In this document: one piece after another, positions 2,156 to 54,680 of the stretch | Layout: every line of letters begins with the position of its first letter | Numbering within the stretch: position 1 is the first letter of the stretch | Origin: Procambarus clarkii | Lineage: Eukaryota > Arthropoda > Malacostraca > Decapoda > Cambaridae | Assembly (NCBI RefSeq): GCF_040958095.1 | Contig: NC_091188.1 | Coordinates: forward strand, 6,330,716-6,394,715 | Length of the DNA stretch: 64,000 bases | Direction of reading: 5' to 3' | Notes under the pieces: model-generated | What the model was told of the DNA's origin: nothing | Seen by the model: the letters and a program-made list of their open reading frames with translations, nothing else | Database searches by the model: none | Program-made: the position numbers and the translations under genes

Positions 2156-2159
2156 CTAA

Positions 2160-3835: not shown

Positions 3836-3837
3836 CA

Positions 3838-7917: not shown

Positions 7918-8025
7918 TATACAATCGACTTGAGAATGGTAGCAAGGCCGGACCGAAACGTCGTCGTCCCTTCACGTTCTAGTGTGTGGTCTGCTCAACT
8001 CACAATGAGTTTGTCCTACACTGAG
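7918..8025. repeat. MITE-like repeat fragment
   Basis: Unit 2 copy of the foldback-derived repeat, with GGCCGGACCGAAACGTCGTC and TTCTAGTGTGTGGTCTG. It ends in the same order as the other copies in the window. Confidence 0.6.
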
Positions 8026-8029
8026 AGAC

Positions 8030-9850: not shown

Positions 9851-10272
9851 GCAACTTCCCGGCTCGATTGTTTCAGGCGTGGGTTGGGCATGCATGTAAG
9901 TGGGATTGGGTGGTTGTAAGTGGGAGCTACCTCGTGTGGGCCTTCTGCAGTTGCCTTTGTTCTTATGTTCTTAACAAAGGGGGATATTAATACGATATTA
10001 AAAGTATCAACACAAGACAGAACACGAAACTATGGGTATAAATTAAATAAGTTTAGGTCTAGCAAAGACATTGGATAAATACTTGTTTGGTAACTGGGTT
10101 GTTGATTTGTGGATTCAATTACCGCGTAACATAATAGAAGTAGGATCCATTGATTGTTTCAAGCATAGGTTAGACATATATGAATGTGATTGGGTGGATA
10201 TAAATAGTACCTGCTTCGTATGGGTCTTGTACAGTTACCTTCAATCTAATGTTCTTATGTCATTGCATATTA
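9850..10272 (+). mobile_element. Two joined CR1-like LINE 3' ends (unit 2)
   Basis: Unit 2 counterpart of 3,838-4,262, with the same joint at CTTATGTTCTTAACAAAGGG. It reads KVSTQDRTRN followed by a diverged C-terminal region. Confidence 0.75.
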
Positions 10273-10399
10273 GGGTTGATAGAAGGCGGTTCTTTAATCC
10301 TTTTAGTTTAATATCGAAAGTGGGAATAAATATGAAAATGGGGTTAAATATGTTATCACGGAAAAAACAGAGTTATTGAGGAAGATGGCTGGTGATGTC

Positions 10400-11308: not shown

Positions 11309-11412
11309 AAGAACATAAGAACAAAGGTAACTACAGAAGGACTATTGGCCTATACGAGGCAGCTACTATCTATAACCACCCAATCCCACTCATAAACATG
11401 TCCAACCCAACC

Positions 11413-11459
11413 CGTGGTGGTGGGGTCCCTCGAAACAATCGAGGGACCCCACCACCACG
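11413..11459. repeat. Perfect 21-bp hairpin (template-switch scar) in LINE
   Basis: Two perfectly complementary 21-bp arms (beginning CGTGGTGGTGGGG) enclose a 5-base loop AACAA. Sister LINE copies have only the right arm and carry GCGCTTGAAAC where the left arm lies. The left arm therefore looks like an inverted copy made in place. Confidence 0.85.
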
Positions 11460-11551
11460 TTACACGGTAATTGGTTCCACAAATCAACAACCATGTTACC
11501 GAACCAGTATTTACCCAAGTCTTTCCTAAATCTAAACTTATCCAATTTATG

Positions 11552-11625
11552 TTGACCACTAGAAGTTGAAGGGACGACGACGTTTCGGTTCGTCCTAGAC
11601 CATTCTCAAGTCGATTGTGATGAGG
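11552..11625. repeat. MITE-like repeat fragment
   Basis: Contains GAAGGGACGACGACGTTTCG and GACCATTCTCAAGTCGATTG, in the opposite orientation to the copy at 2,060. It marks the left edge of the insertion in the unit 3 LINE. Confidence 0.65.
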
Positions 11626-11639
11626 AGAGAAGAGAGAGA

Positions 11640-11810
11640 GAAGATTAAGCCACCCAAAAGGTGGCTTGGGCATGAATAGCCCATAAGTGGTGGCCCTTTT
11701 GAGCCATTTCCAGTATCAATAGATGATACTGGAGATCTGTGGAGGTGCGACTGCACCCTGCGTGACGGGAGATGTCTCCCGTGGTGATGAGGAGATAAAG
11801 ATTGATTGAT
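11640..11810 (-). mobile_element. Short SINE-like element with LINE-type 3' tail
   Basis: On the minus strand it starts near 11,810, passes through paired motifs (CAGTATCATCTATTGATACTG is self-complementary), and ends in the two-hairpin tail (GGGCTATTCATGCCC-like, then GCCACCTTTTGGGTGGC, then ATCTT). The same body and tail are seen at 40,230-40,395 on the plus strand. The tail is shared with the RNase H LINE next to it. Confidence 0.6.
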
Positions 11811-12790
11811 AAAGATTAAGCCACCCAAGAGGTGGCACGGGCATGAATAGCCCGTAAGTGGTACAATTTTTTTTCTCTCAGTATTCTGAGGTTGCATTTA
11901 TCCATCAAGCTGTTATCGCGGGGGAGGATACTGCTTCACAGTCTTTGAGGGTGTCCAGCTGCTGGACACCTTTGTTGACCAGGAGAGTGGCTGTGTTGAT
12001 GGCTTCAGGGTGGCCACTGCATGATTCAGGAACTCTTAAAGCTCTTCTAAGGTCATTGGTTGCTTCACATTCCAGAAGATAGTGAAGTAATGGCTTTTCT
12101 GTGACAGTTTGGCAGAAGATGCACTCTCTCTGTCGGGGTTCACCAATCTCCCAGTTGCATCTGTAACCTAGACGTAGTCTATATAGCCTAACTGCTATTT
12201 CCCTGTGGATTCCTTTTGGGATATTTAACCTTTCTAATTTGGTTGCCTGAAGATACCATGTTGCAGATGGCGAACCTTCAGCTATTCTCTGGTGCAGGTA
12301 GGCTTTGTTGAGATGTGAGAGTTTTTTGGTGATGATGTTTTTTATGTTCTCTAGGCTGGGTTGAATTGTTTTATGTATCACTGGATGGCGAGTTGCCAAT
12401 TTAGCAATTTCATCAGCTTTTTCATTTAATGGGATGGGATCCAGTTGAAAGATTCTGCTAGATTAAGGACCTGCCCGAAACGCTGTGCGTACTAGAGGCT
12501 TTACAAGAATGAAAATACTGTACTATCCAATGTATTCTCACAAACCCAATGTACCTTCTTGTATATATATAAATAAATAAATAAAGTTATGTTGAGTTCT
12601 TTGCCTTTAGCGACTGCTCCAAGATACAAAATGGTGGTAGTTATTTCCACATTATCTTTCCACTGTTTTTGTCCTAGTATTTGAAGTGCAGCTTTTGAGT
12701 CTGTGTGTATGATTGCATTTTGAGTGTTTTGTGCAATCACATATGCGAATGCCTGTTGTATGGCAAACAGCTCAGTGATGAGGAGGTAGG
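11811..12790 (-). mobile_element. Non-LTR retrotransposon 3' part with RNase H domain
   Basis: Read on the minus strand: RNase H text (TELFAIQQAFAY, then AIIHTDSKAALQILG, 12,780-12,600), the NEKADEIAKLA end of RNase H near 12,425, and a C-terminal region (12,399-11,905) with LRLGYRCNWEIGE and a zinc-knuckle-like CIFC...HYLLEC. After the stop come a short 3' UTR and the two-hairpin tail GGGCTATTCATGCCCG + GCCACCTCTTGGGTGGC, ending in ATCAATCA repeats at 11,811. RNase H plus a C-terminal zinc knuckle is usual in the I/R1/Ingi-Jockey group, which is a different family from the CR1 copies. A SINE tail interrupts it at 12,440-12,598. The 5' part is missing. Confidence 0.75.
12440..12598 (+). mobile_element. 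SINE 3' end inserted in RNase H LINE
   Basis: Contains GGACCTGCCCGAAACGCT, GCGTACTAGAGGCTTTACAA and a TATAAATAAATAAATAAAG tail. The same body is found complete, with its tRNA-like head, on the minus strand at 27,213-27,512. It breaks the RNase H reading frame between 12,425 and 12,600. Confidence 0.65.
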
Positions 12791-12884
12791 GACAGGCAAT
12801 AAATAGGCAAGAGAGAGCTGAGGAGGAAAGTAAGGTGTAGGGGATAGTAGTAATAATGAGAACTGCAGAAAGCCTCCAATTTAT
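12785..12884. other. Unrecognised junction DNA
   Basis: About 100 bp of purine-rich DNA between the RNase H LINE remnant and the resumption of the CR1 LINE at 12,885. No feature recognised. Confidence 0.4.
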
Positions 12885-13574
12885 ATATCCAATTTATACC
12901 CATTGTTTCGTGTTCTGTCTTGTGTTGATACTTTTAATACCCTATTAATATCCCCTTTGTTATGTCCATTCATCCACTTGTAAACCTCTATTATGTCACC
13001 CCTAACTCTTCGCCTTTCCAGTCAATGCAATTTAAGCTTTGTTAATATTTCTTCATATGAAAGATTTCTAATTTGGGGAATTAATCGTCCTACGCTGGAC
13101 ACATTCAAGTGAATTTGTATCCATTCTATAGTATGGCGAGCAAAATTGAACTGCATAATCTAAATGGGACCTAACCAGAGCAAGATATAGCTGAAGAACC
13201 ACACCAGGTGTCTTGTTACTAACACTTCGATTAATAAATCCCAGTGTCTTATTTGCCTTATTACGAACATTCATGCATTGATCCTTTTGTTTTAAATTCT
13301 TACTTATCATAACTCCCAGATCCCTTTCGCAATCTCAACACCATCTAGCTCGTATCTTGTAACTCATTACCATTCATCATTACCTAGCCTCAGAACTTTA
13401 CATTTATCAGCATTAAACTGCATCTGCCAATCTTTTGATCATTTCAAACCCTTATTTAGATCAACTTGAAGTGATAGTGAGTCTTCTTCCGTGTTAATTT
13501 CCCTACCGATTTTTGTATCATCTGCAAATTTGCAGATGTTGCTACTCAAACTTGAAATTAAATCATTTATATAT

Positions 13575-13850
13575 ATATTAGGGTATTAAAAGTATCAACA
13601 CAAGACAGAAAACGAAACAATGGGTATAAATTGGATAAGTTTAGATTTAGGAAAGACTTGGGTAAATACTGGTTCGGTAACAGGGTTGTTGATTTGTGGA
13701 ACCAATTACCGCGTAACGTGGTGGAGGTGGGGTCCCTGGATTGTTTCAAGCGCGGATTGGACAAGTATGAGTGGGATTGGGTGGTTATAGATAAGAGCTG
13801 CCTCGTATGGGCCAATAGGCCTTCTGCACCCACCTTTGTTCTTATTATAA
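13575..13850 (+). mobile_element. CR1 3' fragment nested in opposite orientation (unit 3)
   Basis: Same nested plus-strand piece as 5,525-5,800, at the same site in the LINE. It encodes [20 protein letters not shown] and WNQLPRNVVEVG in one open frame. Confidence 0.75.
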
Positions 13851-15284
13851 ACAACAGAGGTCCCAGGACAGAGCCTTGAGGCACTCCACTAACAACATTA
13901 TCCCAATCTGACTTAACTCCATTTATACTAACTCTGTTTCCTTTGGAATAGCCATGCCCTAATCTAACTTTATTATAGCACCCCCAATACCATGAGCCTC
14001 TATTTTTTTTAATCAGTCTTTCATGTGGCACTGTATCAAATGCTTTTCTAAAGTCAAGGTACAAAACATAACAATCCTTACCACTATCAACTGCCTCAAC
14101 TATACTGGAATAAAAAGATAGCAAATTTATTAAACATGAACGGCCATTTGTAAAACCATGTTGCGACTCATTTATTAATTTGTTTTTCAAGATGAAGACG
14201 AATTGTATTTGCAATTATCGATTCAAGTAACTTTCCCATAATAGACGTTAGGCTAATTGGCCGATAGTTTGAAGGAAAGTGATCTATCTCCTTTCTTAAA
14301 AATTAGTACCTCATTAGCTACCTTCCATGGCTCTGGCACTCTGCCTAACTATATTAATTTGTTAAATGTGGTAGACAGTGGCTCGGAAAGCTCCTCTTTG
14401 CATTCTTTAAGCACCTTGACAAACACTTCATCCGGCCCTGGGGATTTATTTGGTTTTAGTTTTACTATTTGTTTAATTACATCCTCCCTGGTAACTGCTA
14501 AACTAGTTAACCTGTCCTCATCCCCACCCACATAGACTTGTTCCGCTGAAGGCATATTGTTAAGTTCCTTTTTAGTAAATACAGATATAGTAAATTTGAC
14601 CTGTCTCAGATTTAATGGACCTATCCTTTCCCTAGTCTTAGTTTGATATAACTGAAAAAACCCTTTAGCATTTGTCTTGGCCTGCTATGCGAACTTCTAT
14701 GCGTTTCTTTTTGCTTTCCTTATCTCTTTTATAACATTTCTAACAAGTTGTGCGAATTCCTGTTCTAAACTGACTTCCCCATTTTAAATCCTTTTATTCC
14801 ACGGTCTCTTTTTACCTATAAGGTTCTTCAGGTCCTTTGTTATCCACTTTGGACCATTATTCGATCTATTCAATTTGTATGGTATACTACGTTCCTGTGA
14901 TTTGCTTAGAATATTCTTAAATAAGTTATATTTTGAATCCACATCGAAATCCCCTTTTACGGCACCTATCGCTGGGTTCATGTCCCGCTCCAAGACCGGC
15001 CCACATCCCATGCCCAATACTTTCCCAAAAAATTTCTTAGGCTATTGAAGTCAGCTTTTCGAAAATCTGGCACTTTAACAGAATATTCTACTATAGGTTT
15101 ATTCCATTCTATGCTAAATATCACTTCTTTGTGATCACAGTTCCCTAGCTCTCTCCCTATTTCGATGTCATTAATTTGTGTTTCCCTGCTAGTTAACACT
15201 AAGTGGGAAAATATTATTCCCACCTACCATTGCAGACTTTCCTTTATGCTGTTGATAATCAATTTATCAATTTCTTTCTTTATT

Positions 15285-39892: not shown

Positions 39893-40005
39893 AGCCAACC
39901 CGTCCTCAGACAGTCAATTCCATCCACTGATCGACCCCAAAGAAGCATTCATCAATTTTAACATGCTGTTCATTCAGAACAGGAATTTTCTCAAATATAA
40001 ATTAA
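39893..40005 (-). repeat. Dispersed ~115-bp repeat, copy 3
   Basis: Minus-strand copy of the repeat at 26,760: CAACCCGTCCTCAGACAGTC to AGGAATTTTCTCAAATATAA. Confidence 0.75.
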
Positions 40006-40014
40006 CATTTGCAG

Positions 40015-40120
40015 GCGATGAGTCACAATAACGTAGCTAAAGTAAGTTGACCAGACCACACACTAGAAGGTGAAGGGACGACGACTTTTCGGTCCGTCCT
40101 GGACCATTCTCAAGTGATTG
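40015..40120. repeat. MITE-like repeat
   Basis: GCGATGAGTCACAATAACGT, GACCAGACCACACACTAGAA, GGGACGACGACTTTTCGGTC and GGACCATTCTCAAGTGATTG, in the opposite orientation to 15,385. Confidence 0.7.
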
Positions 40121-40227
40121 ATAAATTAACATTGTTATATATTAGCATATTGGGCATATTTTGGCATTAGTTAAGTTAGATGTTTAGGTTCTGTTGGCGA
40201 TTATCTGTATTTATAGTACGTGGGTGA

Positions 40228-40395
40228 AGCATTTACACAGAGGCCACGACCTCTCCGCAGGGTGCAGTCGCACCTCCACAGATCTCTCAGTATCAGCTAA
40301 TGATACTGGTAATGACTCCAAAGGGCCACCACTTACGGGCTATTCATGCCCGTGCCACCTTTTGGGTGGCTTAATCTTCATCAATCAACCAATCA
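40228..40395 (+). mobile_element. Short SINE-like element with LINE-type tail
   Basis: Head GGGTGCAGTCGCACCTCCAC, a paired centre (CAGTATCAGCTAATGATACTG), then CTTACGGGCTATTCATGCCC and GCCACCTTTTGGGTGGC, ending in ATCAATCAACCAATCA. Same build as 11,640-11,810. Confidence 0.65.
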
Positions 40396-40514
40396 GCATT
40401 TACAGCGTTGTGGTTCAAACAAAAGTCGTCAGCAAGGCACTTGTTCAGGAAGTGATAGGACGTCATCAGTTGTGAGTCATGTGTAAACCGTTTTTAATTC
40501 ATAACAGGGGGTTT

Positions 40515-40593
40515 GGCGGGTGCATGGATCCTGGTCAAAAAAGGTGTCCAGCAGCTGGACACCCTCATAAAGACTGTCAAGCAGTATCCTCCC
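40515..40593 (+). mobile_element. RNase H LINE 3' end, left half
   Basis: CTGGTCAAAAAAGGTGTCCA and GCAGCTGGACACCCTC...AGCAGTATCCTCCC match the end of the LINE coding region at 11,985-11,915 (minus). The element stops at CCTCCC (40,588-40,593) and resumes at 53,945 after the nested insertions. Confidence 0.85.
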
Positions 40594-40778
40594 GAGTCCC
40601 GGCCGGTCCGGTTGGCCAAGCGGACATCACGCGGGACTGTGGTCCTGGGTTCGATCCTAGGCGCCAGCGAGAAACAATGGGCAGAGTTTCTTTCACCCTA
40701 TGCCCCTGTTACCTAGCAGTAAAATAGGTACCTGGGTGTTAGTCAACTGTCACGGGCTGCTTCCTGGGGATGGAGGCC
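40594..40778 (+). mobile_element. tRNA-derived SINE, left half
   Basis: Head with A box TTGGCCAAGCGG and B box GGTTCGATCC (Leu/Ser tRNA-like), then body CTGTTACCTAGCAGTAAAAT, AGGTACCTGGGTGTTAGTC and CGGGCTGCTTCCTGGGG. It is broken at GAGGCC (40,773-40,778) and resumes at 53,885. Confidence 0.8.
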
Positions 40779-40844
40779 AGTAGTAGGGTTGGCGCCACAC
40801 AGACGAATTTTTTTTTCTGGGAGAAAAATCCCCTGTGCGCCCCA

Positions 40845-40945
40845 AGGGTTTCAGGTCCAAAGGGAAAAAAGGTACCTGTGCGCCCCAAGGGTTTCAGGTA
40901 AATTTAGAATATCCCCTGTGCGCCCCAAGGGTTTTCAGGTAAATT
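40845..40945. repeat. Subterminal GC-rich direct repeats of the palindrome
   Basis: Three copies of a unit with core TGTGCGCCCCAAGGGTTT (about 40,852, 40,880 and 40,918), mirrored at 53,720-53,820. They stand out from the AT-rich arm and lie within 170 bp of each end, where transposase binding sites of other elements are found. Confidence 0.85.
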
Positions 40946-41559
40946 TTGTCAGTCGCAGATTTTAGAAGTAAGGATTTCTTATAATGAAAAATAATGGCAT
41001 ACGAGTTTGTTAAGTTCTTATGAGAAAAATAATTTCCGAGACTTAGAAGTTTGTTAAGGCCTTATGGGAGAAATTCAAATAACGTGTGTAGCACTTTAGG
41101 GCTTCCAGGAGAACTCTACGGACATATTTTACATGTTTTCAACTTACAAAATCGTCTATGTAAGCCTTAGTTATTCATATAAATTTAGAAAATCACCTGT
41201 GTAAGTCATTGTTTTCAGGGTTTCGTACATCACACCCCCCTCCCTCCCCCGTACCTCGCAATCTGTCGCCTCACCTGTGTTTACTTTACGCCCGGTCAGC
41301 CAGACCTCTTATCTTATGTTATCTTCTCATAATATCTGGACCGTCCCTCCTCTCTCTCTCTCCTTTCATTCAGTTCAACTATTTTCCAACATCGTATGTT
41401 TGCTCCTTTTCATTAAGCAAGTCAGTATGTTTGCTCCTTTTCATTAAGCAAGTCAGTTTTACACAAATAAATCATGTTAGTAAGCAAGTTCTAGCTCACG
41501 TTCCCCACCTTAGTCCCCTGTCGTATAAAGAATACTATCATTCCAATCCCTCTAAAATT

Positions 41560-42600
41560 TAAAAATAATCATATTTCAAACGTAGTTCAATACAGTAATT
41601 AGTTACCAAGCTCCAGCTCTTGTCCTCCGCCTTAGCTCTCTCTCGTATCTTCGTTAGTATCAGTCCAATTTCCCTGAAATTTCTACCCTCTGTATTTCAG
41701 ACATAGTTTAGTAAATGCAAACAATTATCAAACTCTAGCTCTTGTCCCCAGCTTAGTTCATTTGTACAAAATCATTAGTAACAGTCCAAATTTCCCTGAA
41801 ATTTCTACCCTCTGTATTTCAGACATAGTTTAGTAAATGCAAACAATTATCAAACTCTAGCTCTTGTCCCCAGCTTAGTTCATTTGTACAAAATCATTAG
41901 TAACAGTCCAAATTTCCCTGAAATTTCTACCCTCTGTATTTCAGACATAGTTTAGTAAATGCAAACAATTATCAAACTCTAGCTCTTGTCCCCAGCTTAG
42001 TTCATTTGTACAAAATCATTAGTAACAGTCCAAATTCCCTGAGATTTTTAGCCTCTGTATTTCAGACACCGTAAATAAGATCAAAACAGTTACCAAGCTC
42101 CAGCTCTTGTCCTCCACCTTAGCTCTCTCTCGTATCTTCGTTAGTAACAGATCAATTCCCCTGAAATTTCTACCCTCCGTATTTCAGACACCGTAAATAA
42201 AATCAAAATAGTTATCGAGCTCCAGCTCTCGTCCCCCGCCTTAATTCTCTTTCGTATCTTTGTAAATAAACCATCAATTTCCCTGAAATTTTTACCCTCT
42301 GTATTTCAGACATAGTAAATATGAAGTAAACAATTATAAAACTCTAGCTCTTGTCCTCTGTCCAAGCTCACTTTTGTAAAATCATTACTCTCAGTCCAAA
42401 TCACCCAACTACATTTTCAGACATAGTAAATAAAAAACCAGTTCAGTTATCAAGTTTCAACTCTTGTGCCCCAGCTTAGTTCATTTGTACAAGTTCTTTA
42501 TTTCCAACTAAATCACCCTGAGATTTAAGATCACCTTATTTCTAACGTAGTAAAATTAATCAGGGCATTAACCAAGCTACATTTCCTCAGCCTTAGATCA
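41560..42600. repeat. ~122-bp tandem repeat layer of left arm
   Basis: Core CCCTGAAATTTCTACCCTCT ... GACATAGTTTAGTAAATGC. Three units at 41,669-42,035 are almost identical with a period of 122; outer units vary in length and sequence. Mirrored at 52,063-53,103. Confidence 0.85.
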
Positions 42601-42724
42601 TCAAACATAAATATTTTCGATCAAGTCCGTCTCCTGCCTATCTGTTTATCAGAATAATTACATTACCCTCCCCTCCCCAACGTATCCAAAACTTCAATAA
42701 TCGTACTGTATTTGCATATTTTCT

Positions 42725-43255
42725 CTATATTCAGCTGTGTTCTTCACATTTTGTCCATGTTTTCTATGTTCACTCCATGTTCTTCAAATGTTCACAGTCC
42801 CATTCAGTTCATATTTTCACAAGTATCTCCATTTTTTCTGTAATCTTTCTCTTAGTGTCATTACTTTCTCTACAAATTCTAGTCATATTTTCTATGTTTT
42901 CATGTTCATCACATGTTCTCTTTACAACTTTTATACTCAATATTCATGCTAACTTCCATATTTTGTGTTCTTTGCAATATTCATGTTCCTCTACAAGTTC
43001 ATGTTCCGCACAAGATCACTTCGTTTTTTCACCTTCACTTACATGTTTTCTACATTCTTTGTCATATTCTCCATGTTCTTCACAAATCCATTGTTCATTC
43101 TTTGTATTCCCTATTCCCCTTATCATGTTTTCATGTTCTCTGTAAGTTCATATTCCCAGCATGTTCACTGTATTCATCAACTTTTCTTACATATGTTCTT
43201 TGCCATGTTCCCCATATGTTCTCTAGGTTTTTCCCCTTACATGTTATCTAACGTT
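42725..43255. repeat. Short CATGTTC/TTCTCC-type repeat layer of left arm
   Basis: The words CATGTTCT, TTCATGTTC and TTCACATGTTC recur every 10-25 bases. Mirrored at 51,408-51,938. The Phe/Ser-rich frames across it are by-products. Confidence 0.7.
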
Positions 43256-44245
43256 CCTTAACTAAAAAATCTTTCACCAATCAACTAAAAACATAGTCAC
43301 TTTCGTCATTTCTCAACTAAACTTATTATCCAGTCAACTAAAAATAGTCAGAAATAGCCTCGTTCAACACTGTTCTTAACTAAAACAACCTTTCTCTTAG
43401 CTAAAAATTGTCAAAGGAAACTTTTTTCAGCACTTTCTTAACAGGCGCTATGTTTCATCAAGAAAAAAATTGTCAATGGAAACTTTCCAAAACTGTTCAT
43501 AACTAGCTTTTATCCATCGTCAATCAACTAAAAATAATAACTTTCATCATTTCTTAACTAAACTTATTCCCCAGTCATCAGAAAATAACCGTGTTCATCA
43601 TGTTTCATTGTCATTTCATAACTAAAATTATCTGCCAATCATCAGAAAAAGTCACTTTCATCATTTCTTAACTAAACTTATTCCCCAGTCATCAGAAAAT
43701 AACCGTGTTCTTCATGTTTCATTGTCATTTCTTATCTAAAAATTATCCGCCAATCATCAGAAAAAGTCATGTTCATCATGTTTTGGCTTTTGCTCAACTA
43801 AAAGTATTCATCGGTCAACTAAAAATAGTTACTTCATCGTGTTTCCTTGTCATTTCTTAACTGAAATATCACTTCTCTCATCTGAAAATAGTCAGGATTA
43901 ACCTCATTCAACACCGTTCTTAACTAAAGTAACCTTTCGCTTAGCTAAAAATTGTCAAAGGAATCTTTTCAGCACTGTTCATAACTAACTTTATCCATCG
44001 TCAAGTAAGAAAATATAGTCAAAGATATCTATCATCGTCGTTCTTAACTGACATTTATACTTTGCGGAGCACTAAAATAGTCACTGTCATCATATTTGTC
44101 TTTTTCCTCAACTAAAGAGTCAAATGTAACTTTTTCACCACTTTCGTAACTAAAATTATATGTCGCTAAGTAAGAAAAAATAGTCAAATGTAACTTTTTC
44201 AACACTTTCGTAACTAAAATTATATGTCGCTAAGTAAGAAAAATA
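43256..44245. repeat. CAACTAAA/CATCAGAAAA repeat layer of left arm
   Basis: Degenerate repeats with CAGTCATCAGAAAATAACC, CATTTCTTAACTAAA and TCAACTAAAAATAGTCA, including two 60-70 bp near-copies at 44,125-44,245. Mirrored at 50,418-51,407. Confidence 0.75.
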
Positions 44246-46120
44246 GTCAAAGGTGCTCTCCGTTACACAAAAGTTACTCTTCGAGAAATCAAAGACACTC
44301 TTCAATACATCAAGGACTTACTCAAAGACACCAAAGTTACACTCTAAGACATCCTTCGAGACATCAAAGACATCCTTTAAGACTTCAAGGGCACTCTTCG
44401 AGATATCAAAAGACACTCTCAAACACTCAAAAATTTACTCGCATCCCTCAAAGTTATTCTCGGAGCTATCAAAAAAGTTAATCTCTAAAACAACAAAAGT
44501 TAATCTCGGTCATCAAAGTTGATCTGCAAGATATCTTCGAGTCATCAAAGTTACTTTTTCATTACATCAAAGACGCGTTCAAATACTACCCATGTTCTCA
44601 GAAGTCATTCTCAAAGTTATTCAAAGAGCTAACAAAAGTTATTCTCAGAGTCACCTTCGTTCTTCAGAGAAACTTTCCAAAACATCTTTGTTCATCAAAG
44701 TTATTCTCAGAGTTAACAAAGGTAATCTCTAACTCACTCTCAGTCATCAAAGTTAATCCAAGAGACGTCAAAGTTAATCTAAGACATCATCTTTCATCAA
44801 AGATATTCTCTCTAAGCCATCAATGTTCTTCTCTAAGACATAAAAGTTATTCTCTATGTCAACAAAAGTTATTCTCTGAGCTAACAAAATACTACTCATG
44901 TTCTCAAAGACATTCTCCAATTCATCAATGTTGTTTCAAAGACATCAAAGTTAATCTCAGAGTTATCCAAAGACATTCTCAAAGTCATCTAAAGTTATTC
45001 TCTAAGACATCAAAGATATTCTAAGAGTTATCAAAAGTTATTCTCAGTCATGTTATGTTATTCTCTAACTCTCTTCCATTCATCAAAGACATTCTCTAAG
45101 CCCTCAAAGTTATTCTCTAAGACAACAAAGTCATTCCCAGAGTCATCAAAAGTTATTCTTCGAAACATAAAATTTGCTCTGTAAGATATCTTCGTTCATC
45201 AAACTTATTCTCCGAGATATCTAAAGTTATTCTCAGAACAATCAAAAGTTATTATAAGACAACAAAAATTTATTATCAGAGCTACCCAAAGCTATTCTCA
45301 GAGTCACCTTCGTTCGTCAGAGAAACTTTCAAAACATCTTTGTTCAACAAACTTGTTTTCAAAGTCATCAAAAGTTAATCTAAGACATCTGCTTTCATCA
45401 AAGTTATTTTCAGAGACATCTAAAGTTATTATGTAAGACATAAAAGTTATTCTCAGAGACATCAAATGTTATTCTCGAAGTCATCAAAGATATTTTCAGA
45501 GACATCTAAAGTTAATTTCTATGTTATAAAGTTATTCTCAGAGACATCTAAAGTTAATCTTGGTCATCAAAGTTGTTCTCTAAACATCAATGTTGTTCTC
45601 CAAGACATCAAAGATGTTCTCAAAATCATAAAAGTTATTCCCAGAGCTATCAAAGTTAATCTCAGAGTTATCCAAAGATATTCTCATGTCCACAAAAGTT
45701 ATTCCAAGAGACGTCAAAGTTGTTTCAAAGACTTCAAAGTTAATCTCAGAGTTATCCAAAGACATTCTCAGAGACATCTAAAGTTATTCTCTAAGACATC
45801 AAAGTTGTTCTAAGAGTTATCAAAAGTTATTCTCAGTCATGATATGTTATTCTCTAACTCACTTCCATTCATCAAAGACATTCTCTAAGTCCTGAAAGTT
45901 ATTCTCTAAGACAACAAAGTCTTTCTCAGAGCTACCAAAGATGTTCTCTAAATCATAAAAGTTAATCTTAACTCACCTTCGTTCATTAGAGAAACTTTCC
46001 AATCCATATTCGTTGACCAGAGTTATTCTCAGAGTCATCAAAGCGATCTCTAATTCATCTTCGTTCTCCAAAGTTGTTCTCTAAGACACCTTCGTTCATC
46101 AAAGAAACTCTCCTTCTTCC
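44246..46120. repeat. ~20-bp CATCAAAGTTATTCTC repeat layer of left arm
   Basis: Roughly 90 degenerate units built on GACATCAAAGTTATTCTC(T/A)GA, the largest layer. Mirrored at 48,543-50,417. Confidence 0.85.
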
Positions 46121-46309
46121 ATCATGTTATTCTTTAAGACATCTTCAGTCATAAAATTTTCTCTCCAAAATGTAACTAGTTCAGCTTTTCATACCAAACC
46201 TGCATTTCTGTTAAAACATATTTTCTTAGACATTTTACCTTTTAAACTGTTCTCTGAACTACACTGTTCAAACCTACGTAACCTATCCTCTCCACCCAAT
46301 GTTACTTAG

Positions 46310-46650
46310 TTAACGTAACGTTCCTAAACCTAGCTTTACCTATCCTAACATACCTTACCTTACCTTCCCTATCTTACCTAACTTTACCTATCCTAACATA
46401 ACTTACCTTACCTTCCCTATCTTACCTAACTTTACCTATCCTAACATAACTTACCTTACCTTCTCTAACTTAACCTAACTTTACCTATCCTAACTTAACT
46501 TACCTAACTTATTCTGCTTAACATAACTTACCTTCATATCTTACCTAACTTTACCTATCCTATCCTAACCTAACTTGTCTTACATAACTTAATCTTACTT
46601 TCCCAAACTGATGTATCCTAACTTATCTAGTCCAACCAGACATGATCTAA
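46310..46650. repeat. TTACCTAACTTTACCTATCC repeat layer of left arm
   Basis: Degenerate units of CTAACTTTACCTATCCTAAC. They include CCTAA words, like the arthropod telomere repeat, but are not a clean telomere array. Mirrored at 48,013-48,353. Confidence 0.75.
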
Positions 46651-46679
46651 CTTAAGTATTCCTTCTTGTCTTTGTGTTT

Positions 46680-47095
46680 CGTCAATCATTGTCTCATATT
46701 CATTTACTCATTTCAAGGGTTAATTTCTCAAATGGTCACTTATGCATTTCAAGTGCTATTTGTTAGAGATTGGATATTTAAGCATTTCAAAGAATTATAA
46801 TTTCTCAAATGGACGTTTTTGCATTTCAAGTGCTATTTGCTAGAGATTGAATATTTAAGCATTTCAAAGAATTTTTGTTATATATGGGCATTTACTCGTT
46901 TCAAGGGCTAATTTCTCAAATGGTCATTTTTGCAGATCAAGGGTTATTTGTTAAAGTTCATCAAGTTGCCCATAAGTTGTATTAGTAGGTTCTATCTTAT
47001 GTTCTTATTCCCCAACCCTTTAACCTAACCTTTCAGATGTAGTTTGTTGAATATATTATCCTTTTCCTAACCTTTCAGATGTAGTTTTGTTTCTC
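46680..47095. repeat. Inner ~75-bp and ~45-bp repeat layers of left arm
   Basis: Units with GGGTTAATTTCTCAAATGGTC and GCATTTCAAGTGCTATTTG (46,710-46,950), then two units with CCTAACCTTTCAGATGTAGT (47,025-47,085). Mirrored at 47,578-47,983. Confidence 0.75.
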
Positions 47096-47578
47096 CTTTG
47101 TATATTTTTACCCAAACCTTCTTTCCTTCTTTTACTTTGATTCTCCTACTCCTTCTAACCCTCCTTTTCTATCTCTCTCCCTTATTCTCTCTCTTCCTCC
47201 CCCTCTCTCTCCCTCATTTGCTCAAATGCTCTCTTGTTTCTCAAATTCATGTCTTATTGCTCCCATTCTCACACCCTCATTCTCATTCACTTAGTTTTTC
47301 TTTTTCTCAATTCAAGTCTTAGTGCTCCCATGCCCACACTCTCTCTCATTCTCTCTTCTTTGGCCCCATTTTCTTCCGCCCCCTCTCTCTTACTCCTTGC
47401 TCTTCTTTCATGCTCTCACTCCCTTGAGCTCTTGTTTCTCAATTTCAAGTCTTAGTAGATCTGATTCTTTACTATTGTAATTTTATTATTACTAAGATAA
47501 AGAATGAACTTATATGTGAAAACAAAGTAAAGAAGGAAAGATGGTTTGGGTAAAAATATACAAAAAGGAGAAACAAAG
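47085..47578. other. Central spacer of the palindrome
   Basis: Similarity between arms fades over about 50 bp on each side. The rest is unique: CT-rich low-complexity DNA (CTCTCTCTCCCTC words) at 47,150-47,460 and AT-rich DNA to 47,520. No gene. Confidence 0.75.
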
Positions 47579-50500
47579 CTACATCTGAAAGGTTAGGAAA
47601 AGGATAATATATTCAACAAACTACATCTGAAAGGTTAGGTTAAAGGGTTGGGGAATAAGAACATAAGATAGAACCTACTAATACAACTTATGGGCAACTT
47701 GATGAACTTTAACAAATAACCCTTGATCTGCAAAAATGACCATTTGAGAAATTAGCCCTTGAAACGAGTAAATGCCCATATATAACAAAAATTCTTTGAA
47801 ATGCTTAAATATTCAATCTCTAGCAAATAGCACTTGAAATGCAAAAACGTCCATTTGAGAAATTATAATTCTTTGAAATGCTTAAATATCCAATCTCTAA
47901 CAAATAGCACTTGAAATGCATAAGTGACCATTTGAGAAATTAACCCTTGAAATGAGTAAATGAATATGAGACAATGATTGACGAAACACAAAGACAAGAA
48001 GGAATACTTAAGTTAGATCATGTCTGGTTGGACTAGATAAGTTAGGATACATCAGTTTGGGAAAGTAAGATTAAGTTATGTAAGACAAGTTAGGTTAGGA
48101 TAGGATAGGTAAAGTTAGGTAAGATATGAAGGTAAGTTATGTTAAGCAGAATAAGTTAGGTAAGTTAAGTTAGGATAGGTAAAGTTAGGTTAAGTTAGAG
48201 AAGGTAAGGTAAGTTATGTTAGGATAGGTAAAGTTAGGTAAGATAGGGAAGGTAAGGTAAGTTATGTTAGGATAGGTAAAGTTAGGTAAGATAGGGAAGG
48301 TAAGGTAAGGTATGTTAGGATAGGTAAAGCTAGGTTTAGGAACGTTACGTTAACTAAGTAACATTGGGTGGAGAGGATAGGTTACGTAGGTTTGAACAGT
48401 GTAGTTCAGAGAACAGTTTAAAAGGTAAAATGTCTAAGAAAATATGTTTTAACAGAAATGCAGGTTTGGTATGAAAAGCTGAACTAGTTACATTTTGGAG
48501 AGAAAATTTTATGACTGAAGATGTCTTAAAGAATAACATGATGGAAGAAGGAGAGTTTCTTTGATGAACGAAGGTGTCTTAGAGAACAACTTTGGAGAAC
48601 GAAGATGAATTAGAGATCGCTTTGATGACTCTGAGAATAACTCTGGTCAACGAATATGGATTGGAAAGTTTCTCTAATGAACGAAGGTGAGTTAAGATTA
48701 ACTTTTATGATTTAGAGAACATCTTTGGTAGCTCTGAGAAAGACTTTGTTGTCTTAGAGAATAACTTTCAGGACTTAGAGAATGTCTTTGATGAATGGAA
48801 GTGAGTTAGAGAATAACATATCATGACTGAGAATAACTTTTGATAACTCTTAGAACAACTTTGATGTCTTAGAGAATAACTTTAGATGTCTCTGAGAATG
48901 TCTTTGGATAACTCTGAGATTAACTTTGAAGTCTTTGAAACAACTTTGACGTCTCTTGGAATAACTTTTGTGGACATGAGAATATCTTTGGATAACTCTG
49001 AGATTAACTTTGATAGCTCTGGGAATAACTTTTATGATTTTGAGAACATCTTTGATGTCTTGGAGAACAACATTGATGTTTAGAGAACAACTTTGATGAC
49101 CAAGATTAACTTTAGATGTCTCTGAGAATAACTTTATAACATAGAAATTAACTTTAGATGTCTCTGAAAATATCTTTGATGACTTCGAGAATAACATTTG
49201 ATGTCTCTGAGAATAACTTTTATGTCTTACATAATAACTTTAGATGTCTCTGAAAATAACTTTGATGAAAGCAGATGTCTTAGATTAACTTTTGATGACT
49301 TTGAAAACAAGTTTGTTGAACAAAGATGTTTTGAAAGTTTCTCTGACGAACGAAGGTGACTCTGAGAATAGCTTTGGGTAGCTCTGATAATAAATTTTTG
49401 TTGTCTTATAATAACTTTTGATTGTTCTGAGAATAACTTTAGATATCTCGGAGAATAAGTTTGATGAACGAAGATATCTTACAGAGCAAATTTTATGTTT
49501 CGAAGAATAACTTTTGATGACTCTGGGAATGACTTTGTTGTCTTAGAGAATAACTTTGAGGGCTTAGAGAATGTCTTTGATGAATGGAAGAGAGTTAGAG
49601 AATAACATAACATGACTGAGAATAACTTTTGATAACTCTTAGAATATCTTTGATGTCTTAGAGAATAACTTTAGATGACTTTGAGAATGTCTTTGGATAA
49701 CTCTGAGATTAACTTTGATGTCTTTGAAACAACATTGATGAATTGGAGAATGTCTTTGAGAACATGAGTAGTATTTTGTTAGCTCAGAGAATAACTTTTG
49801 TTGACATAGAGAATAACTTTTATGTCTTAGAGAAGAACATTGATGGCTTAGAGAGAATATCTTTGATGAAAGATGATGTCTTAGATTAACTTTGACGTCT
49901 CTTGGATTAACTTTGATGACTGAGAGTGAGTTAGAGATTACCTTTGTTAACTCTGAGAATAACTTTGATGAACAAAGATGTTTTGGAAAGTTTCTCTGAA
50001 GAACGAAGGTGACTCTGAGAATAACTTTTGTTAGCTCTTTGAATAACTTTGAGAATGACTTCTGAGAACATGGGTAGTATTTGAACGCGTCTTTGATGTA
50101 ATGAAAAAGTAACTTTGATGACTCGAAGATATCTTGCAGATCAACTTTGATGACCGAGATTAACTTTTGTTGTTTTAGAGATTAACTTTTTTGATAGCTC
50201 CGAGAATAACTTTGAGGGATGCGAGTAAATTTTTGAGTGTTTGAGAGTGTCTTTTGATATCTCGAAGAGTGCCCTTGAAGTCTTAAAGGATGTCTTTGAT
50301 GTCTCGAAGGATGTCTTAGAGTGTAACTTTGGTGTCTTTGAGTAAGTCCTTGATGTATTGAAGAGTGTCTTTGATTTCTCGAAGAGTAACTTTTGTGTAA
50401 CGGAGAGCACCTTTGACTATTTTTCTTACTTAGCGACATATAATTTTAGTTACGAAAGTGTTGAAAAAGTTACATTTGACTATTTTTTCTTACTTAGCGA

Positions 50501-53500
50501 CATATAATTTTAGTTACGAAAGTGGTGAAAAAGTTACATTTGACTCTTTAGTTGAGGAAAAAGACAAATATGATGACAGTGACTATTTTAGTGCTCCGCA
50601 AAGTATAAATGTCAGTTAAGAACGACGATGATAGATATCTTTGACTATATTTTCTTACTTGACGATGGATAAAGTTAGTTATGAACAGTGCTGAAAAGAT
50701 TCCTTTGACAATTTTTAGCTAAGCGAAAGGTTACTTTAGTTAAGAACGGTGTTGAATGAGGTTAATCCTGACTATTTTCAGATGAGAGAAGTGATATTTC
50801 AGTTAAGAAATGACAAGGAAACACGATGAAGTAACTATTTTTAGTTGACCGATGAATACTTTTAGTTGAGCAAAAGCCAAAACATGATGAACATGACTTT
50901 TTCTGATGATTGGCGGATAATTTTTAGATAAGAAATGACAATGAAACATGAAGAACACGGTTATTTTCTGATGACTGGGGAATAAGTTTAGTTAAGAAAT
51001 GATGAAAGTGACTTTTTCTGATGATTGGCAGATAATTTTAGTTATGAAATGACAATGAAACATGATGAACACGGTTATTTTCTGATGACTGGGGAATAAG
51101 TTTAGTTAAGAAATGATGAAAGTTATTATTTTTAGTTGATTGACGATGGATAAAAGCTAGTTATGAACAGTTTTGGAAAGTTTCCATTGACAATTTTTTT
51201 CTTGATGAAACATAGCGCCTGTTAAGAAAGTGCTGAAAAAAGTTTCCTTTGACAATTTTTAGCTAAGAGAAAGGTTGTTTTAGTTAAGAACAGTGTTGAA
51301 CGAGGCTATTTCTGACTATTTTTAGTTGACTGGATAATAAGTTTAGTTGAGAAATGACGAAAGTGACTATGTTTTTAGTTGATTGGTGAAAGATTTTTTA
51401 GTTAAGGAACGTTAGATAACATGTAAGGGGAAAAACCTAGAGAACATATGGGGAACATGGCAAAGAACATATGTAAGAAAAGTTGATGAATACAGTGAAC
51501 ATGCTGGGAATATGAACTTACAGAGAACATGAAAACATGATAAGGGGAATAGGGAATACAAAGAATGAACAATGGATTTGTGAAGAACATGGAGAATATG
51601 ACAAAGAATGTAGAAAACATGTAAGTGAAGGTGAAAAAACGAAGTGATCTTGTGCGGAACATGAACTTGTAGAGGAACATGAATATTGCAAAGAACACAA
51701 AATATGGAAGTTAGCATGAATATTGAGTATAAAAGTTGTAAAGAGAACATGTGATGAACATGAAAACATAGAAAATATGACTAGAATTTGTAGAGAAAGT
51801 AATGACACTAAGAGAAAGATTACAGAAAAAATGGAGATACTTGTGAAAATATGAACTGAATGGGACTGTGAACATTTGAAGAACATGGAGTGAACATAGA
51901 AAACATGGACAAAATGTGAAGAACACAGCTGAATATAGAGAAAATATGCAAATACAGTACGATTATTGAAGTTTTGGATACGTTGGGGAGGGGAGGGTAA
52001 TGTAATTATTCTGATAAACAGATAGGCAGGAGACGGACTTGATCGAAAATATTTATGTTTGATGATCTAAGGCTGAGGAAATGTAGCTTGGTTAATGCCC
52101 TGATTAATTTTACTACGTTAGAAATAAGGTGATCTTAAATCTCAGGGTGATTTAGTTGGAAATAAAGAACTTGTACAAATGAACTAAGCTGGGGCACAAG
52201 AGTTGAAACTTGATAACTGAACTGGTTTTTTATTTACTATGTCTGAAAATGTAGTTGGGTGATTTGGACTGAGAGTAATGATTTTACAAAAGTGAGCTTG
52301 GACAGAGGACAAGAGCTAGAGTTTTATAATTGTTTACTTCATATTTACTATGTCTGAAATACAGAGGGTAAAAATTTCAGGGAAATTGATGGTTTATTTA
52401 CAAAGATACGAAAGAGAATTAAGGCGGGGGACGAGAGCTGGAGCTCGATAACTATTTTGATTTTATTTACGGTGTCTGAAATACGGAGGGTAGAAATTTC
52501 AGGGGAATTGATCTGTTACTAACGAAGATACGAGAGAGAGCTAAGGTGGAGGACAAGAGCTGGAGCTTGGTAACTGTTTTGATCTTATTTACGGTGTCTG
52601 AAATACAGAGGCTAAAAATCTCAGGGAATTTGGACTGTTACTAATGATTTTGTACAAATGAACTAAGCTGGGGACAAGAGCTAGAGTTTGATAATTGTTT
52701 GCATTTACTAAACTATGTCTGAAATACAGAGGGTAGAAATTTCAGGGAAATTTGGACTGTTACTAATGATTTTGTACAAATGAACTAAGCTGGGGACAAG
52801 AGCTAGAGTTTGATAATTGTTTGCATTTACTAAACTATGTCTGAAATACAGAGGGTAGAAATTTCAGGGAAATTTGGACTGTTACTAATGATTTTGTACA
52901 AATGAACTAAGCTGGGGACAAGAGCTAGAGTTTGATAATTGTTTGCATTTACTAAACTATGTCTGAAATACAGAGGGTAGAAATTTCAGGGAAATTGGAC
53001 TGATACTAACGAAGATACGAGAGAGAGCTAAGGCGGAGGACAAGAGCTGGAGCTTGGTAACTAATTACTGTATTGAACTACGTTTGAAATATGATTATTT
53101 TTAAATTTTAGAGGGATTGGAATGATAGTATTCTTTATACGACAGGGGACTAAGGTGGGGAACGTGAGCTAGAACTTGCTTACTAACATGATTTATTTGT
53201 GTAAAACTGACTTGCTTAATGAAAAGGAGCAAACATACTGACTTGCTTAATGAAAAGGAGCAAACATACGATGTTGGAAAATAGTTGAACTGAATGAAAG
53301 GAGAGAGAGAGAGGAGGGACGGTCCAGATATTATGAGAAGATAACATAAGATAAGAGGTCTGGCTGACCGGGCGTAAAGTAAACACAGGTGAGGCGACAG
53401 ATTGCGAGGTACGGGGGAGGGAGGGGGGTGTGATGTACGAAACCCTGAAAACAATGACTTACACAGGTGATTTTCTAAATTTATATGAATAACTAAGGCT

Positions 53501-53884
53501 TACATAGACGATTTTGTAAGTTGAAAACATGTAAAATATGTCCGTAGAGTTCTCCTGGAAGCCCTAAAGTGCTACACACGTTATTTGAATTTCTCCCATA
53601 AGGCCTTAACAAACTTCTAAGTCTCGGAAATTATTTTTCTCATAAGAACTTAACAAACTCGTATGCCATTATTTTTCATTATAAGAAATCCTTACTTCTA
53701 AAATCTGCGACTGACAAAATTTACCTGAAAACCCTTGGGGCGCACAGGGGATATTCTAAATTTACCTGAAACCCTTGGGGCGCACAGGTACCTTTTTTCC
53801 CTTTGGACCTGAAACCCTTGGGGCGCACAGGGGATTTTTCTCCCAGAAAAAAAAATTCGTCTGTGTGGCGCCAACCCTACTACT

Positions 53885-53944
53885 GAGGCCTGGTCGAGGA
53901 CCGAGCCGCGGGGACACTAAAGCCCCGAAATCATCTCAAGATAA
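53885..53944 (+). mobile_element. tRNA-derived SINE, right half
   Basis: GAGGCCTGGTCGAGGACCGA, GCCGCGGGGACACTAAAGCC and CCGAAATCATCTCAAGATAA, in the same orientation as 40,594-40,778. From memory, decapod SINEs join these two halves directly. Confidence 0.75.
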
Positions 53945-54083
53945 CCTCCCCCGCGATAACAGCTTGATGATTAAATGCAACCTCAGAATACTGAAAAGAA
54001 TTACTGAACAAAAAATTGTACCGCTTACGGGCTATTCATGCCCGTGCCACCTCTTGGGTGGCTTAATCTTTATCAATCAATCA
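53945..54083 (+). mobile_element. RNase H LINE 3' end, right half and tail
   Basis: CCTCCCCCGCGATAACAGCT, TTAAATGCAACCTCAGAATACTG and the two-hairpin tail continue exactly where 40,593 left off, compared with the uninterrupted copy at 11,811-11,985. Confidence 0.85.
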
Positions 54084-54084
54084 G

Positions 54085-54680
54085 GGTGCATGGAATAGAC
54101 TTTGGCCTTTGTTTATGAGGACGGGCTGTAACAGCATATTTCGTCCGGACGTAGATCAGTGTAAAGTTTACTTGAAGTCTCGAACCGTTAACTCGGAGTC
54201 TCGTTCTTTCCATCGATACCGAGTCAAAGATGTTGAAATCTTGTCGAAATGCATTGGAAATCAGAACAGAGAAATCTCTGTGAGTGAGATGGTTACCCAT
54301 TTCTTCACAGTGACCCTTGACAGAGGGGGACGCAACTTGCTTAAGTCTGTGAGGAAAGTGATACCTATGTGCTCATATATATAGTGTTTAAAATTTTGTG
54401 AGGTATTTCCCCCACGTATTAAATTTTTCTTTTCGAACATTTACAATGATAAACAACATCAAATCTAAGGTCAAAAGGTTAATATATAAAAATATAAATA
54501 CACACACAGCAATTTACTCGTTATCCCTACATTTCTCGTGTCTATTTGACCATTTTACATTTTCTCCCTCGCTTTCTGTTGAGGATAATCTGACGTTTCC
54601 CTACAGTAGGAAGGGGATTAACTCCATTTTCAGTTGCATTTCTATTTTGGCGCGTGTATCACTTAATTCTTGAATATACT
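54085..54680. other. Unrecognised DNA
   Basis: An open plus-strand frame of 91 codons (54,109-54,384, MFMRTGCNSIFRPDVDQCKV start) has no motif I recognise. No other feature. Confidence 0.35.

What the first reader, a model, noticed from the sequence alone, without database searches (positions are those of the whole stretch)
40779..53884. Giant 13.1-kb near-perfect palindrome that is a discrete insertion
Arms of about 6.3 kb pair base for base (coordinate sum 94,663 throughout) around a centre of about 0.5 kb. It is not a random inverted duplication: the LINE and SINE that flank it continue in the same orientation on both sides, and the flanking 6 bp are duplicated. No known crustacean foldback element of this size is familiar to me. 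The near-identity of the arms means it is either very young or homogenised by arm-to-arm gene conversion. Inference: a new class of giant foldback transposon.
Basis: partly seen in the sequence, partly recalled or inferred. Interest (0 to 1): 0.92.

Follow-up and report, generated by a model that had tools for sequence, protein, structure and literature searches.

The report
Giant palindromic hitchhikers of Maverick elements
A 13-kb gene-free mirror-image DNA element, one of many in this decapod-like genome, carries the same ends, the same insertion signature and nearly the same length as virus-like Maverick (Polinton) elements of the same genome, which suggests that it lives off their copying and insertion machinery.

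Summary
The palindrome is real: 40,779-53,884, arms about 6,364 bp (0 mismatches in 6,293 aligned positions), centre 377 bp, 6-bp duplication GAGGCC, inserted in a SINE-like repeat. It is neither an artefact nor unique: 40 elements of the same genome were recognised as this palindrome (8 read whole, 32 by midpoint probe), mean 12.7 kb. 'New foldback transposon' is half right. Missed was the owner of the ends: Polinton/Maverick elements here (DNA polymerase B, A32-type packaging ATPase, retroviral-type integrase) carry the same termini (78 of 78 bp in C307), the 6-bp duplication, and measure 13.4-13.6 kb. The outer ~0.6 kb of each arm is Maverick terminal repeat; the rest is noncoding tandem repeats without blastn match to the Maverick pieces held. 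Both kinds share a covarying terminal hairpin (15 chosen termini), and palindrome termini mix with Maverick termini. Best reading: a non-autonomous satellite of Mavericks, inserted by their integrase, probably copied by their polymerase, possibly packaged. Snap-back copying that restores symmetry is inferred; gene conversion is a rival.

The parts
   Evidence: joined-flank blastn: the two parts are adjacent at window 11,984-11,800 with no SINE-like part between
40594..40778 (+). SINE-like repeat, left part, ending in TSD GAGGCC (40,773-40,778)
   Evidence: two copies in L019 span the junction uninterrupted
40779..40788 (+). terminus AGTAGTAGGG, contains the (AGT)2 end motif of Mavericks
   Evidence: same 10 bp at both ends of 8 of 8 palindromes read with both ends and at Maverick ends; motif described in PMC8097293 (passages)
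40789..40845 (+). terminal hairpin (stem 40,789-40,811 with 40,824-40,845)
   Evidence: covariation on 15 chosen termini, 50 double-changed cells against 17.7 +/- 2.9 shuffled; same 75 bp in Mavericks C307 and C72
40779..41362 (+). Maverick-type TIR part of left arm (about 584 bp; a short match also at 41,435-41,471)
   Evidence: blastn to the TIRs of Mavericks C307, C16a and C16b, 84-86%; best Maverick identity 0.95 for this copy and up to 0.97 for others over arm bases 191-580
41363..47142 (+). left arm, noncoding tandem-repeat stuffer (arrays of 122-, 114-, 64-, 21/43-, 48- and 77-bp units)
   Evidence: TRF; no coding-looking ORF; no blastn match of arms beyond base 700 to 17 Maverick pieces
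47143..47519 (.). asymmetric, pyrimidine-rich centre
   Evidence: not mirrored; best conserved segment among the 9 copies, which were chosen by their centre
47520..53884 (-). right arm, mirror of left arm, ending CCCTACTACT
53885..53944 (+). TSD GAGGCC (53,885-53,890) and SINE-like repeat, right part
53945..54082 (.). outer repeat, right part

Best explanation
The palindrome is a non-autonomous, protein-free satellite of the Maverick/Polinton elements of this genome. SHOWN: it has the Mavericks' termini, terminal hairpin, outer TIR, TSD length and nearly their genome length, and it encodes no recognisable protein. INFERRED, step 1: the Maverick integrase recognises the AGTAGT...ACTACT ends and inserts the linear element with a 6-bp staggered cut. 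INFERRED, step 2: the Maverick protein-primed polymerase starts at the (AGT)2 ends by jumping back, as proposed for Mavericks and adenovirus, and copies the satellite as a linear DNA. INFERRED, step 3: a strand that stops past the centre, or a displaced strand, folds back on itself and copies its own arm, so each round can re-make both arms from one; recombination between satellites near the conserved centre makes hybrids (such as C22) that this step re-symmetrises (such as the window copy C39). INFERRED, step 4: the length held near 13 kb without genes to protect it reflects a capsid-size limit, so the satellite may be packaged with the Maverick's ATPase.
For: (a) Three PolB hits lie inside intervals bounded by inverted copies of the palindrome's 92-bp terminus: C307, C16a, C16b; a C7-type terminus lies 3.57 kb from PolB at C52; midpoint probes added C72 and C147. 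(b) Of 19 sites fetched where a terminus was predicted 3.57 kb upstream of PolB, 15 show AGTAGTAGG exactly, 2 AGTAGTGGGG, 1 none, 1 is masked; the twentieth site, C52, was known beforehand. (c) Gene pieces: Pox_A32 33.6 bits and rve 37.2 bits, both over cut-off; the PolB C-part in that piece is under its cut-off (23.1 of 25.8) but the PolB hit of C307 in the genome search is over it (42.5). (d) 6-bp TSD: 7 of 8 palindromes read whole 6/6 and 1 of 8 5/6; 6 of 6 further palindromes and 3 of 4 Mavericks 6/6. (e) Length: 40 palindromes 12,743 +/- 597 bp, 5 Mavericks 13,448 +/- 98 bp. (f) Hairpin covariation score 0.363 against 0.121 shuffled and at most 0.130 slid. (g) Of 9 palindrome termini, 6 have a Maverick as clear nearest neighbour, 2 (C7, C171) each other and then Maverick C52, 1 (C45R) a tie at 0.80; labels do not separate (193 of 2,000 permutations reach the observed separation). 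(h) C22's left arm plus centre matches the window copy over 6,908 bp with 0 mismatches while its other arm differs (354 substitutions in 5,359 arm to arm). (i) End motif, jumping-back and size constraint of Mavericks: passages of PMC8097293.
Against: No replication intermediate, virion or transposition was observed. Three of 9 palindrome termini (C16 0.86, C67 0.83, C45R 0.80) lack a close Maverick among the 22 Maverick termini sampled. Inside the TIR (arm bases 191-580) 8 of 11 palindromes are slightly closer to another palindrome than to any of the 4 Mavericks compared. Nine of 26 distinct termini do not fold below all of 100 shuffles, and the 15 termini were chosen among those that do. The capsid gene is only a guess from position: the 445-aa family has no Pfam, PHROG or PDB-sequence match and could not be folded. 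C22's arms differ, so symmetry is not obligatory. Chromosomal gene conversion would explain arm identity equally well. Similar lengths could reflect common descent instead of packaging; palindromes vary more (CV 4.7%) than Mavericks (0.7%), average 0.7 kb shorter, and four elements of 8.6-10.8 kb show arm sequence but no centre at their midpoint.
Confidence: 0.85

Rival explanations
1. Same satellite of Mavericks, but the arms are kept alike by ordinary chromosomal arm-to-arm gene conversion after insertion, not by snap-back copying during replication.
For: Arms differ by 0-0.27% substitutions in 8 of 9 copies although copies differ from each other by up to 29% in places; large palindromes on sex chromosomes do this (recalled).
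Against: C22 keeps 6.6% arm divergence with both 6-bp TSDs intact, and the window copy looks like a doubled C22 left half. Neither settles it: C22 may be young.
Confidence: 0.4
2. Integration-only hitchhiker: a foldback transposon that uses the Maverick integrase by cut-and-paste, is never copied by the Maverick polymerase and never packaged; its length is inherited.
For: Only the ends (about 0.6 kb) are Maverick by blastn; non-autonomous DNA transposons commonly share only ends with helpers (general knowledge).
Against: Gene-free elements usually shrink (general knowledge), yet all 40 palindromes counted lie between 11.1 and 13.9 kb; reading I saw no inverted pair of termini closer than 8.6 kb, hairpin self-matches aside.
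Confidence: 0.3
3. An independent giant foldback family (Galileo/P, Mutator or another superfamily) with its own transposase, whose ends resemble Maverick ends by chance.
For: Architecture like Galileo: long, internally repetitive inverted repeats, chimeric copies (PMC3573991, passages).
Against: 78 of 78 bp identity to Maverick ends, same TSD length, same hairpin, shared TIR; Galileo has 7-bp flanks and TIRs up to 1.26 kb.
Confidence: 0.03
4. Assembly or read fold-back artefact.
For: Fold-back reads are a known artefact (PMC12870357, seen in the search listing only); arms identical in the window.
Against: Inverted pairs at many loci, 14 palindromes with their own TSDs, and copy-specific small arm differences.
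Confidence: 0.01

Closest known systems
Maverick/Polinton elements (vertebrate Mavericks, PMC8097293, passages)
   Same: (AGT)2//(ACT)2 end motif, 6-bp TSD, TIR, constrained genome size; the helper here has PolB, A32-type ATPase and integrase
   Different: the palindrome has no recognisable genes; its inverted repeat is 6.36 kb, not 46-1,447 bp; centre and stuffer are its own
Foldback transposons: Galileo (PMC3573991, passages), Tetris (PMC4079207, listing only), FB (recalled)
   Same: Galileo: long inverted repeats, some with internal tandem repeats, chimeric copies, non-coding members
   Different: Galileo is a P-superfamily element with 7-bp flanks and TIRs up to 1.26 kb; here 6-bp TSD, Maverick ends, arms five times longer
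Snapback subgenomes of adeno-associated virus (PMC8235507, passages)
   Same: self-complementary genome that replicates when Rep and helper functions are supplied
   Different: those carry the parent virus's own sequence; here the arms beyond the TIR have no blastn match to the helper pieces, and the copies are chromosomal
Virophages and transpovirons (satellites of giant viruses; recalled)
   Same: satellite living off a larger DNA virus, some integrate
   Different: those encode proteins; this one has no recognisable protein

Membership tests
Maverick/Polinton (as a non-autonomous member) | (AGT)2//(ACT)2 or (AG)3//(CT)3 end motif | tested here: met
   AGTAGTAGGG...CCCTACTACT at 8 of 8 palindromes read with both ends, of 11 read; motif from PMC8097293
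Maverick/Polinton (as a non-autonomous member) | 6-bp target-site duplication | tested here: met
   13 of 14 palindromes 6/6, 1 of 14 5/6; C7b, C9 and C19 lie in repetitive flanks, so theirs are weak
Maverick/Polinton (as a non-autonomous member) | terminal sequence shared with autonomous Mavericks of the same genome | tested here: met
   78/78 bp with C307; nearest Maverick 0.80-1.00 for 9 termini, three of them below 0.90
Maverick/Polinton (as an autonomous member) | encodes PolB, integrase, ATPase, capsid genes | tested here: not met
   only simple-repeat-like frames of at most 182 aa in the palindrome; no blastn match of arms beyond base 700 to the Maverick pieces held
Galileo/P-type foldback | 7-bp flanking duplication and P-type transposase relatives | tested here: not met
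   6-bp TSD; no transposase-like frame in the element. Transposase relatives elsewhere in the genome were not searched
Mutator-type foldback | 8-11 bp TSD (recalled) | tested here: not met
   6-bp TSD
Satellite virus genome | packaged in helper capsids | not testable with these tools
   only indirect: similar genome length and a packaging-type ATPase in the helper; exact 27-mer of the centre has 0 matches in viral contigs
Snapback genome | both arms copied from one arm | tested here: inconclusive
   C39 equals a doubled C22 left half; direction of descent not shown

The most novel reading that the evidence does not exclude
A gene-free satellite virus: a palindromic, capsid-length parasite of an endogenous animal Maverick virus that re-makes both arms by snap-back copying at every cycle, and that changes its terminal hairpin to match whichever Maverick lineage is active, a lock-and-key race at the replication origin. 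It would be direct genomic evidence that Mavericks of animals replicate as linear DNA and fill capsids.
Probability: 0.4. Interest if true: 0.93.

Novelty: new variant of a known kind. Interest (0 to 1): 0.85.

Why it matters
Whether Mavericks are working viruses is open because particles have not been observed (start of the abstract of PMC8097293). A passenger without genes, yet held near the helper's genome length, is independent evidence for a size limit on their genomes and makes the question directly testable by looking for protected palindrome DNA. The elements are also among the longest near-perfect palindromes forming a mobile family that I know of (recalled), which bears on how a genome tolerates dozens of 6-kb inverted repeats. 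The covarying terminal hairpin in helper and satellite points to an origin-recognition code in Mavericks; I did not search for an earlier report of it. The library search for 'non-autonomous' or 'nonautonomous' Maverick or Polinton found no paper with those phrases (3 papers, all for 'Polinton-derived').

Tried and rejected
Rfam over 40,000-54,500: 0 matches at gathering score. ARAGORN over the window: 0 tRNA genes. ORFs in the arms: only simple-repeat-like frames. An independent foldback superfamily was considered and rejected on ends and TSD. Confirming the capsid: of 7 Maverick protein pieces scanned with Pfam, 3 hit PolB, A32 and rve, the 413-aa capsid candidate only two families under their cut-offs, 3 pieces (314, 144 and 536 aa) nothing; no PHROG or PDB-sequence match for the 445-aa family; its named relatives, in Procambarus clarkii and Penaeus japonicus, are 'uncharacterized'. 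Virus contigs: 0 for the centre 27-mer, and 143 pattern stretches with no confirmed relative for the capsid-candidate family. A donor for C22's right arm: best of the 40 scored is 96% over the full 601 bp, 98% over partial matches. A gradient of arm divergence from the centre, seen in BLAST pieces, did not hold in the end-to-end alignment and was dropped. tblastx without filter gave weak matches of the window arm at 1,849-2,335 to sequence just inside Maverick TIRs (20-32% identity, repeat-rich); I did not count these as homology. Terminus searches for C67 and C81 types did not complete.

Rows dropped before counts: inverted pairs 27.6 kb (C77) and 42.6 kb (C79) apart were not counted as elements. 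Other pairs visible (C94:4.0 Mb, C60, C45:17.9 Mb, C68, C30, C1565, C8, C43:38.1 Mb, C65, C70:18.5 Mb, C35, C185, C307:157 kb, C873 and more) were not probed at the midpoint and are in no count. Copies without both ends (C5, C45:26 Mb, C261) are left out of TSD and length counts (C5 is in the arm count). For one search, 15 of 26 distinct termini were used, chosen among those with a clear hairpin, so its percentage paired is biased upward; over all 26, 17 fold below all of 100 mononucleotide shuffles and 9 do not (my notebook entry says 19, which was a miscount). The 9 copies were picked by their centre, so centre conservation there is biased; in 32 copies found by their ends the longest match to the central 661 bp is 85-98% identical.
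Full report
OBSERVATION. The mirror symmetry is exact: 62 of 63 hundred-base blocks from 40,800 to 47,099 pair 100 of 100 at coordinate sum 94,663, the last 99 of 100; self-alignment extends the arms to 47,142 and 47,520 with 3 mismatches and 2 gap openings, and the outer 6,293 aligned bases have none. The centre is an asymmetric pyrimidine-rich 377 bp. The element begins AGTAGTAGGG, ends CCCTACTACT and is flanked by GAGGCC twice. Removing it restores a SINE-like repeat, two copies of which in L019 span the junction, and that repeat itself interrupts another one present without it at 11,800-11,984.

IT IS A FAMILY. The window lies in an unnamed 4.03-Gb assembly. The terminal 601 bp, the centre and the terminal 92 bp each ring at many loci, often as inverted pairs; 40 candidates are scored per DNA search, so numbers are lower bounds. 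Ten copies, chosen from the 40 scored centre hits, were read in two halves each. With the window copy, 8 of these 11 have both termini; all 8 have the AGTAGTAGGG ends, 7 of 8 perfect 6-bp TSDs and 1 of 8 five of six. The other three (C5, C45, C261) lack at least one end. Midpoint probes of 40 further elements bounded by inverted termini gave 32 with palindrome-centre sequence at the midpoint, 4 with arm sequence but no centre (8.6-10.8 kb), 2 Mavericks and 2 of a third kind. These 40 were found with palindrome termini as queries, so the ratio of palindromes to Mavericks is not a census.

ARMS. Within a copy, arm-to-arm substitutions are 0/6,293 (C39, the window), 1/6,446 (C81), 2/6,257 (C5), 2/5,963 (C19), 4/6,050 (C67), 2/5,258 (C171), 8/5,828 (C16), 15/5,467 (C7) and 354/5,359 (C22); besides, 0-4 gaps per copy occur, the larger ones 68-257 bp, and 61 in C22. 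Between copies the arms are mosaics, about 71-98% alike by segment. C22 shares its left arm and centre with the window copy over 6,908 bp with 0 mismatches and 1 gap, while its right arm belongs to another lineage from about 165 bp beyond the centre outward. Inference: C22 is a hybrid formed by exchange near the centre, and C39 is either its parent or a re-symmetrised descendant.

THE OWNER OF THE ENDS. A search with Pfam PF03175 (polymerase B) gave 95 matches (91 candidates scored of 1,428 from the first look), many with open frames of about 1,300 aa. Three of them lie inside inverted pairs of the palindrome's own terminus: C307:204,325-217,732, C16:14,774,296-14,787,834 and C16:15,706,915-15,720,274; a fourth, C52, starts with the C7-type terminus. 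Separate gene pieces show the C-terminal part of PolB (23.1 bits, under the cut-off of 25.8 for this part alone), an A32-type packaging ATPase (PF04665, 33.6 bits, cut-off 22.8) and an rve integrase (PF00665, 37.2 bits, cut-off 32.6). A protein family of about 445 aa further on, with named relatives in Procambarus clarkii and Penaeus japonicus and otherwise unnamed contigs, sits where a capsid protein would be expected; this is unproven. The relatives suggest a decapod, probably crayfish-like, host (inference). Maverick TIRs here are about 0.92 kb, and the first 0.55 kb align with the first 0.58 kb of the window palindrome at 84-86%; the terminal 78 bp are identical in C307 and C16b. Of the 4 Mavericks read at both ends (C307, C16a, C16b, C72), 3 have perfect 6-bp TSDs; C16b does not (2 of 6) and looks chimeric. 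Twenty PolB-proximal ends were fetched, 19 by prediction and C52 already known: of the 19, 15 exact AGTAGTAGG, 2 with one change, 1 none, 1 masked; C52 exact.

SHARED HAIRPIN AND MIXED ENDS. Behind AGTAGTAGGG follows a hairpin whose stem letters differ between lineages while pairing is kept. On 15 of the 26 distinct termini (chosen for a clear hairpin; palindromes and Mavericks together), 83.4% of cells pair, 50 cells carry changes on both sides (shuffled 17.7 +/- 2.9; 0 of 500 reach it) and the covariation score is 0.363 against 0.121 shuffled and 0.024-0.130 slid. One measure is ordinary: further pair types 22 against 19.8 +/- 2.2 (105 of 500). The shuffle control ignores relatedness; the slide control keeps it. 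Over all 26 termini, 17 fold below all of 100 mononucleotide shuffles and 9 do not. Comparing 9 palindrome termini (the window plus copies found by their centre, so not chosen by their ends) with 22 Maverick termini over bases 11-75: nearest Maverick identities 1.00, 0.95, 0.95, 0.94, 0.93, 0.91, 0.86, 0.83, 0.80, and label permutation does not separate the two kinds (193 of 2,000). The C19 type, 0.91 there, has a closer Maverick in C147, 96-97% over 92 bp at its two ends. Inside the TIR (arm bases 191-580) the best of 4 Mavericks matches the 11 palindromes compared at 0.54-0.97 (C261 0.54 and C16 0.72 aligned poorly, the other 9 are 0.90-0.97); 8 of 11 are slightly closer to another palindrome, 1 ties and 2 are closer to a Maverick. 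Beyond arm base 700 no palindrome arm with an intact end matches the 17 Maverick pieces held by blastn (0 hits at E 1e-5); unfiltered tblastx gave weak repeat-rich matches at arm 1,849-2,335. These pieces do not cover a whole Maverick, and 8 of them are PolB loci of other elements.

LENGTH. Forty palindromes measure 12,743 +/- 597 bp (11,139-13,891), five Mavericks 13,448 +/- 98 bp. PMC8097293 (passages) reports a constrained size, about 10% variation, for vertebrate Mavericks, 6-bp TSDs, (AGT)2 ends, and the expected jumping-back role of the end repeats.

MECHANISM. Shown: shared ends, TSD, hairpin, TIR and near-equal length; no recognisable genes; symmetry in 8 of 9 measured copies. Inferred from the families involved: integration by the Maverick integrase; protein-primed copying from both ends; snap-back or panhandle copying that restores symmetry; possible packaging. 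Gene conversion between arms in the chromosome is a serious alternative for the symmetry alone. The closest working analogy is the snapback subgenomes of adeno-associated virus (PMC8235507, passages).

NOVELTY. Non-autonomous elements sharing ends with a helper, foldback elements and snapback genomes are each known; a helper-length, gene-free, palindromic satellite of Mavericks did not appear in the listings shown by the library searches (listings are cut to the best rows) nor in two decapod repeat papers searched within for Maverick, palindrome, inverted repeat and foldback (PMC13130569, PMC10454600, passages). Most subscription journals and repeat databases such as Repbase are not held, so absence there is unknown.

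Noticed in passing
G000 C39:28,562,366-28,574,199 and C59:27,511,001-27,524,755 (midpoints L115, L123): A third kind of element with the same kind of termini carries a long open frame (267 aa without stop in L115, 264 in L123); L115 has no Pfam, PHROG or clear PDB match. A macro-domain look is my recollection only. Possibly a gene-bearing satellite.
   Followed up: partly
G000 C873:5,923-62,635: Five termini of the family on one small contig, two inverted pairs about 12.5 kb long: a cluster of elements.
   Followed up: no
G000 C84:13,474,498; C83:10,022,694; C3:39,774,318; C12:29,629,656: Shorter elements (8.6-10.8 kb) with palindrome-arm sequence but no centre at the midpoint, probably deletion derivatives.
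   Followed up: partly
window 1,676-4,343 and 7,530-10,352: Several of the same tandem repeats occur twice about 5.9-6.0 kb apart, as in a direct segmental duplication.
   Followed up: no
window 46,328-46,595 and mirror 48,066-48,336: CCTAA/TTAGG-like degenerate array, resembling the arthropod telomere repeat (recalled), in the inner arm.
   Followed up: no
L045/L046 (C16:15,706,915-15,720,274): A Maverick whose two TIRs differ and whose flanks do not match: likely a recombinant between two insertions.
   Followed up: partly
L019 (C45:26.15 Mb): This copy has no recognisable left arm beyond the inner 0.94 kb that is still mirrored; two SINE-like copies lie in that left half.
   Followed up: no
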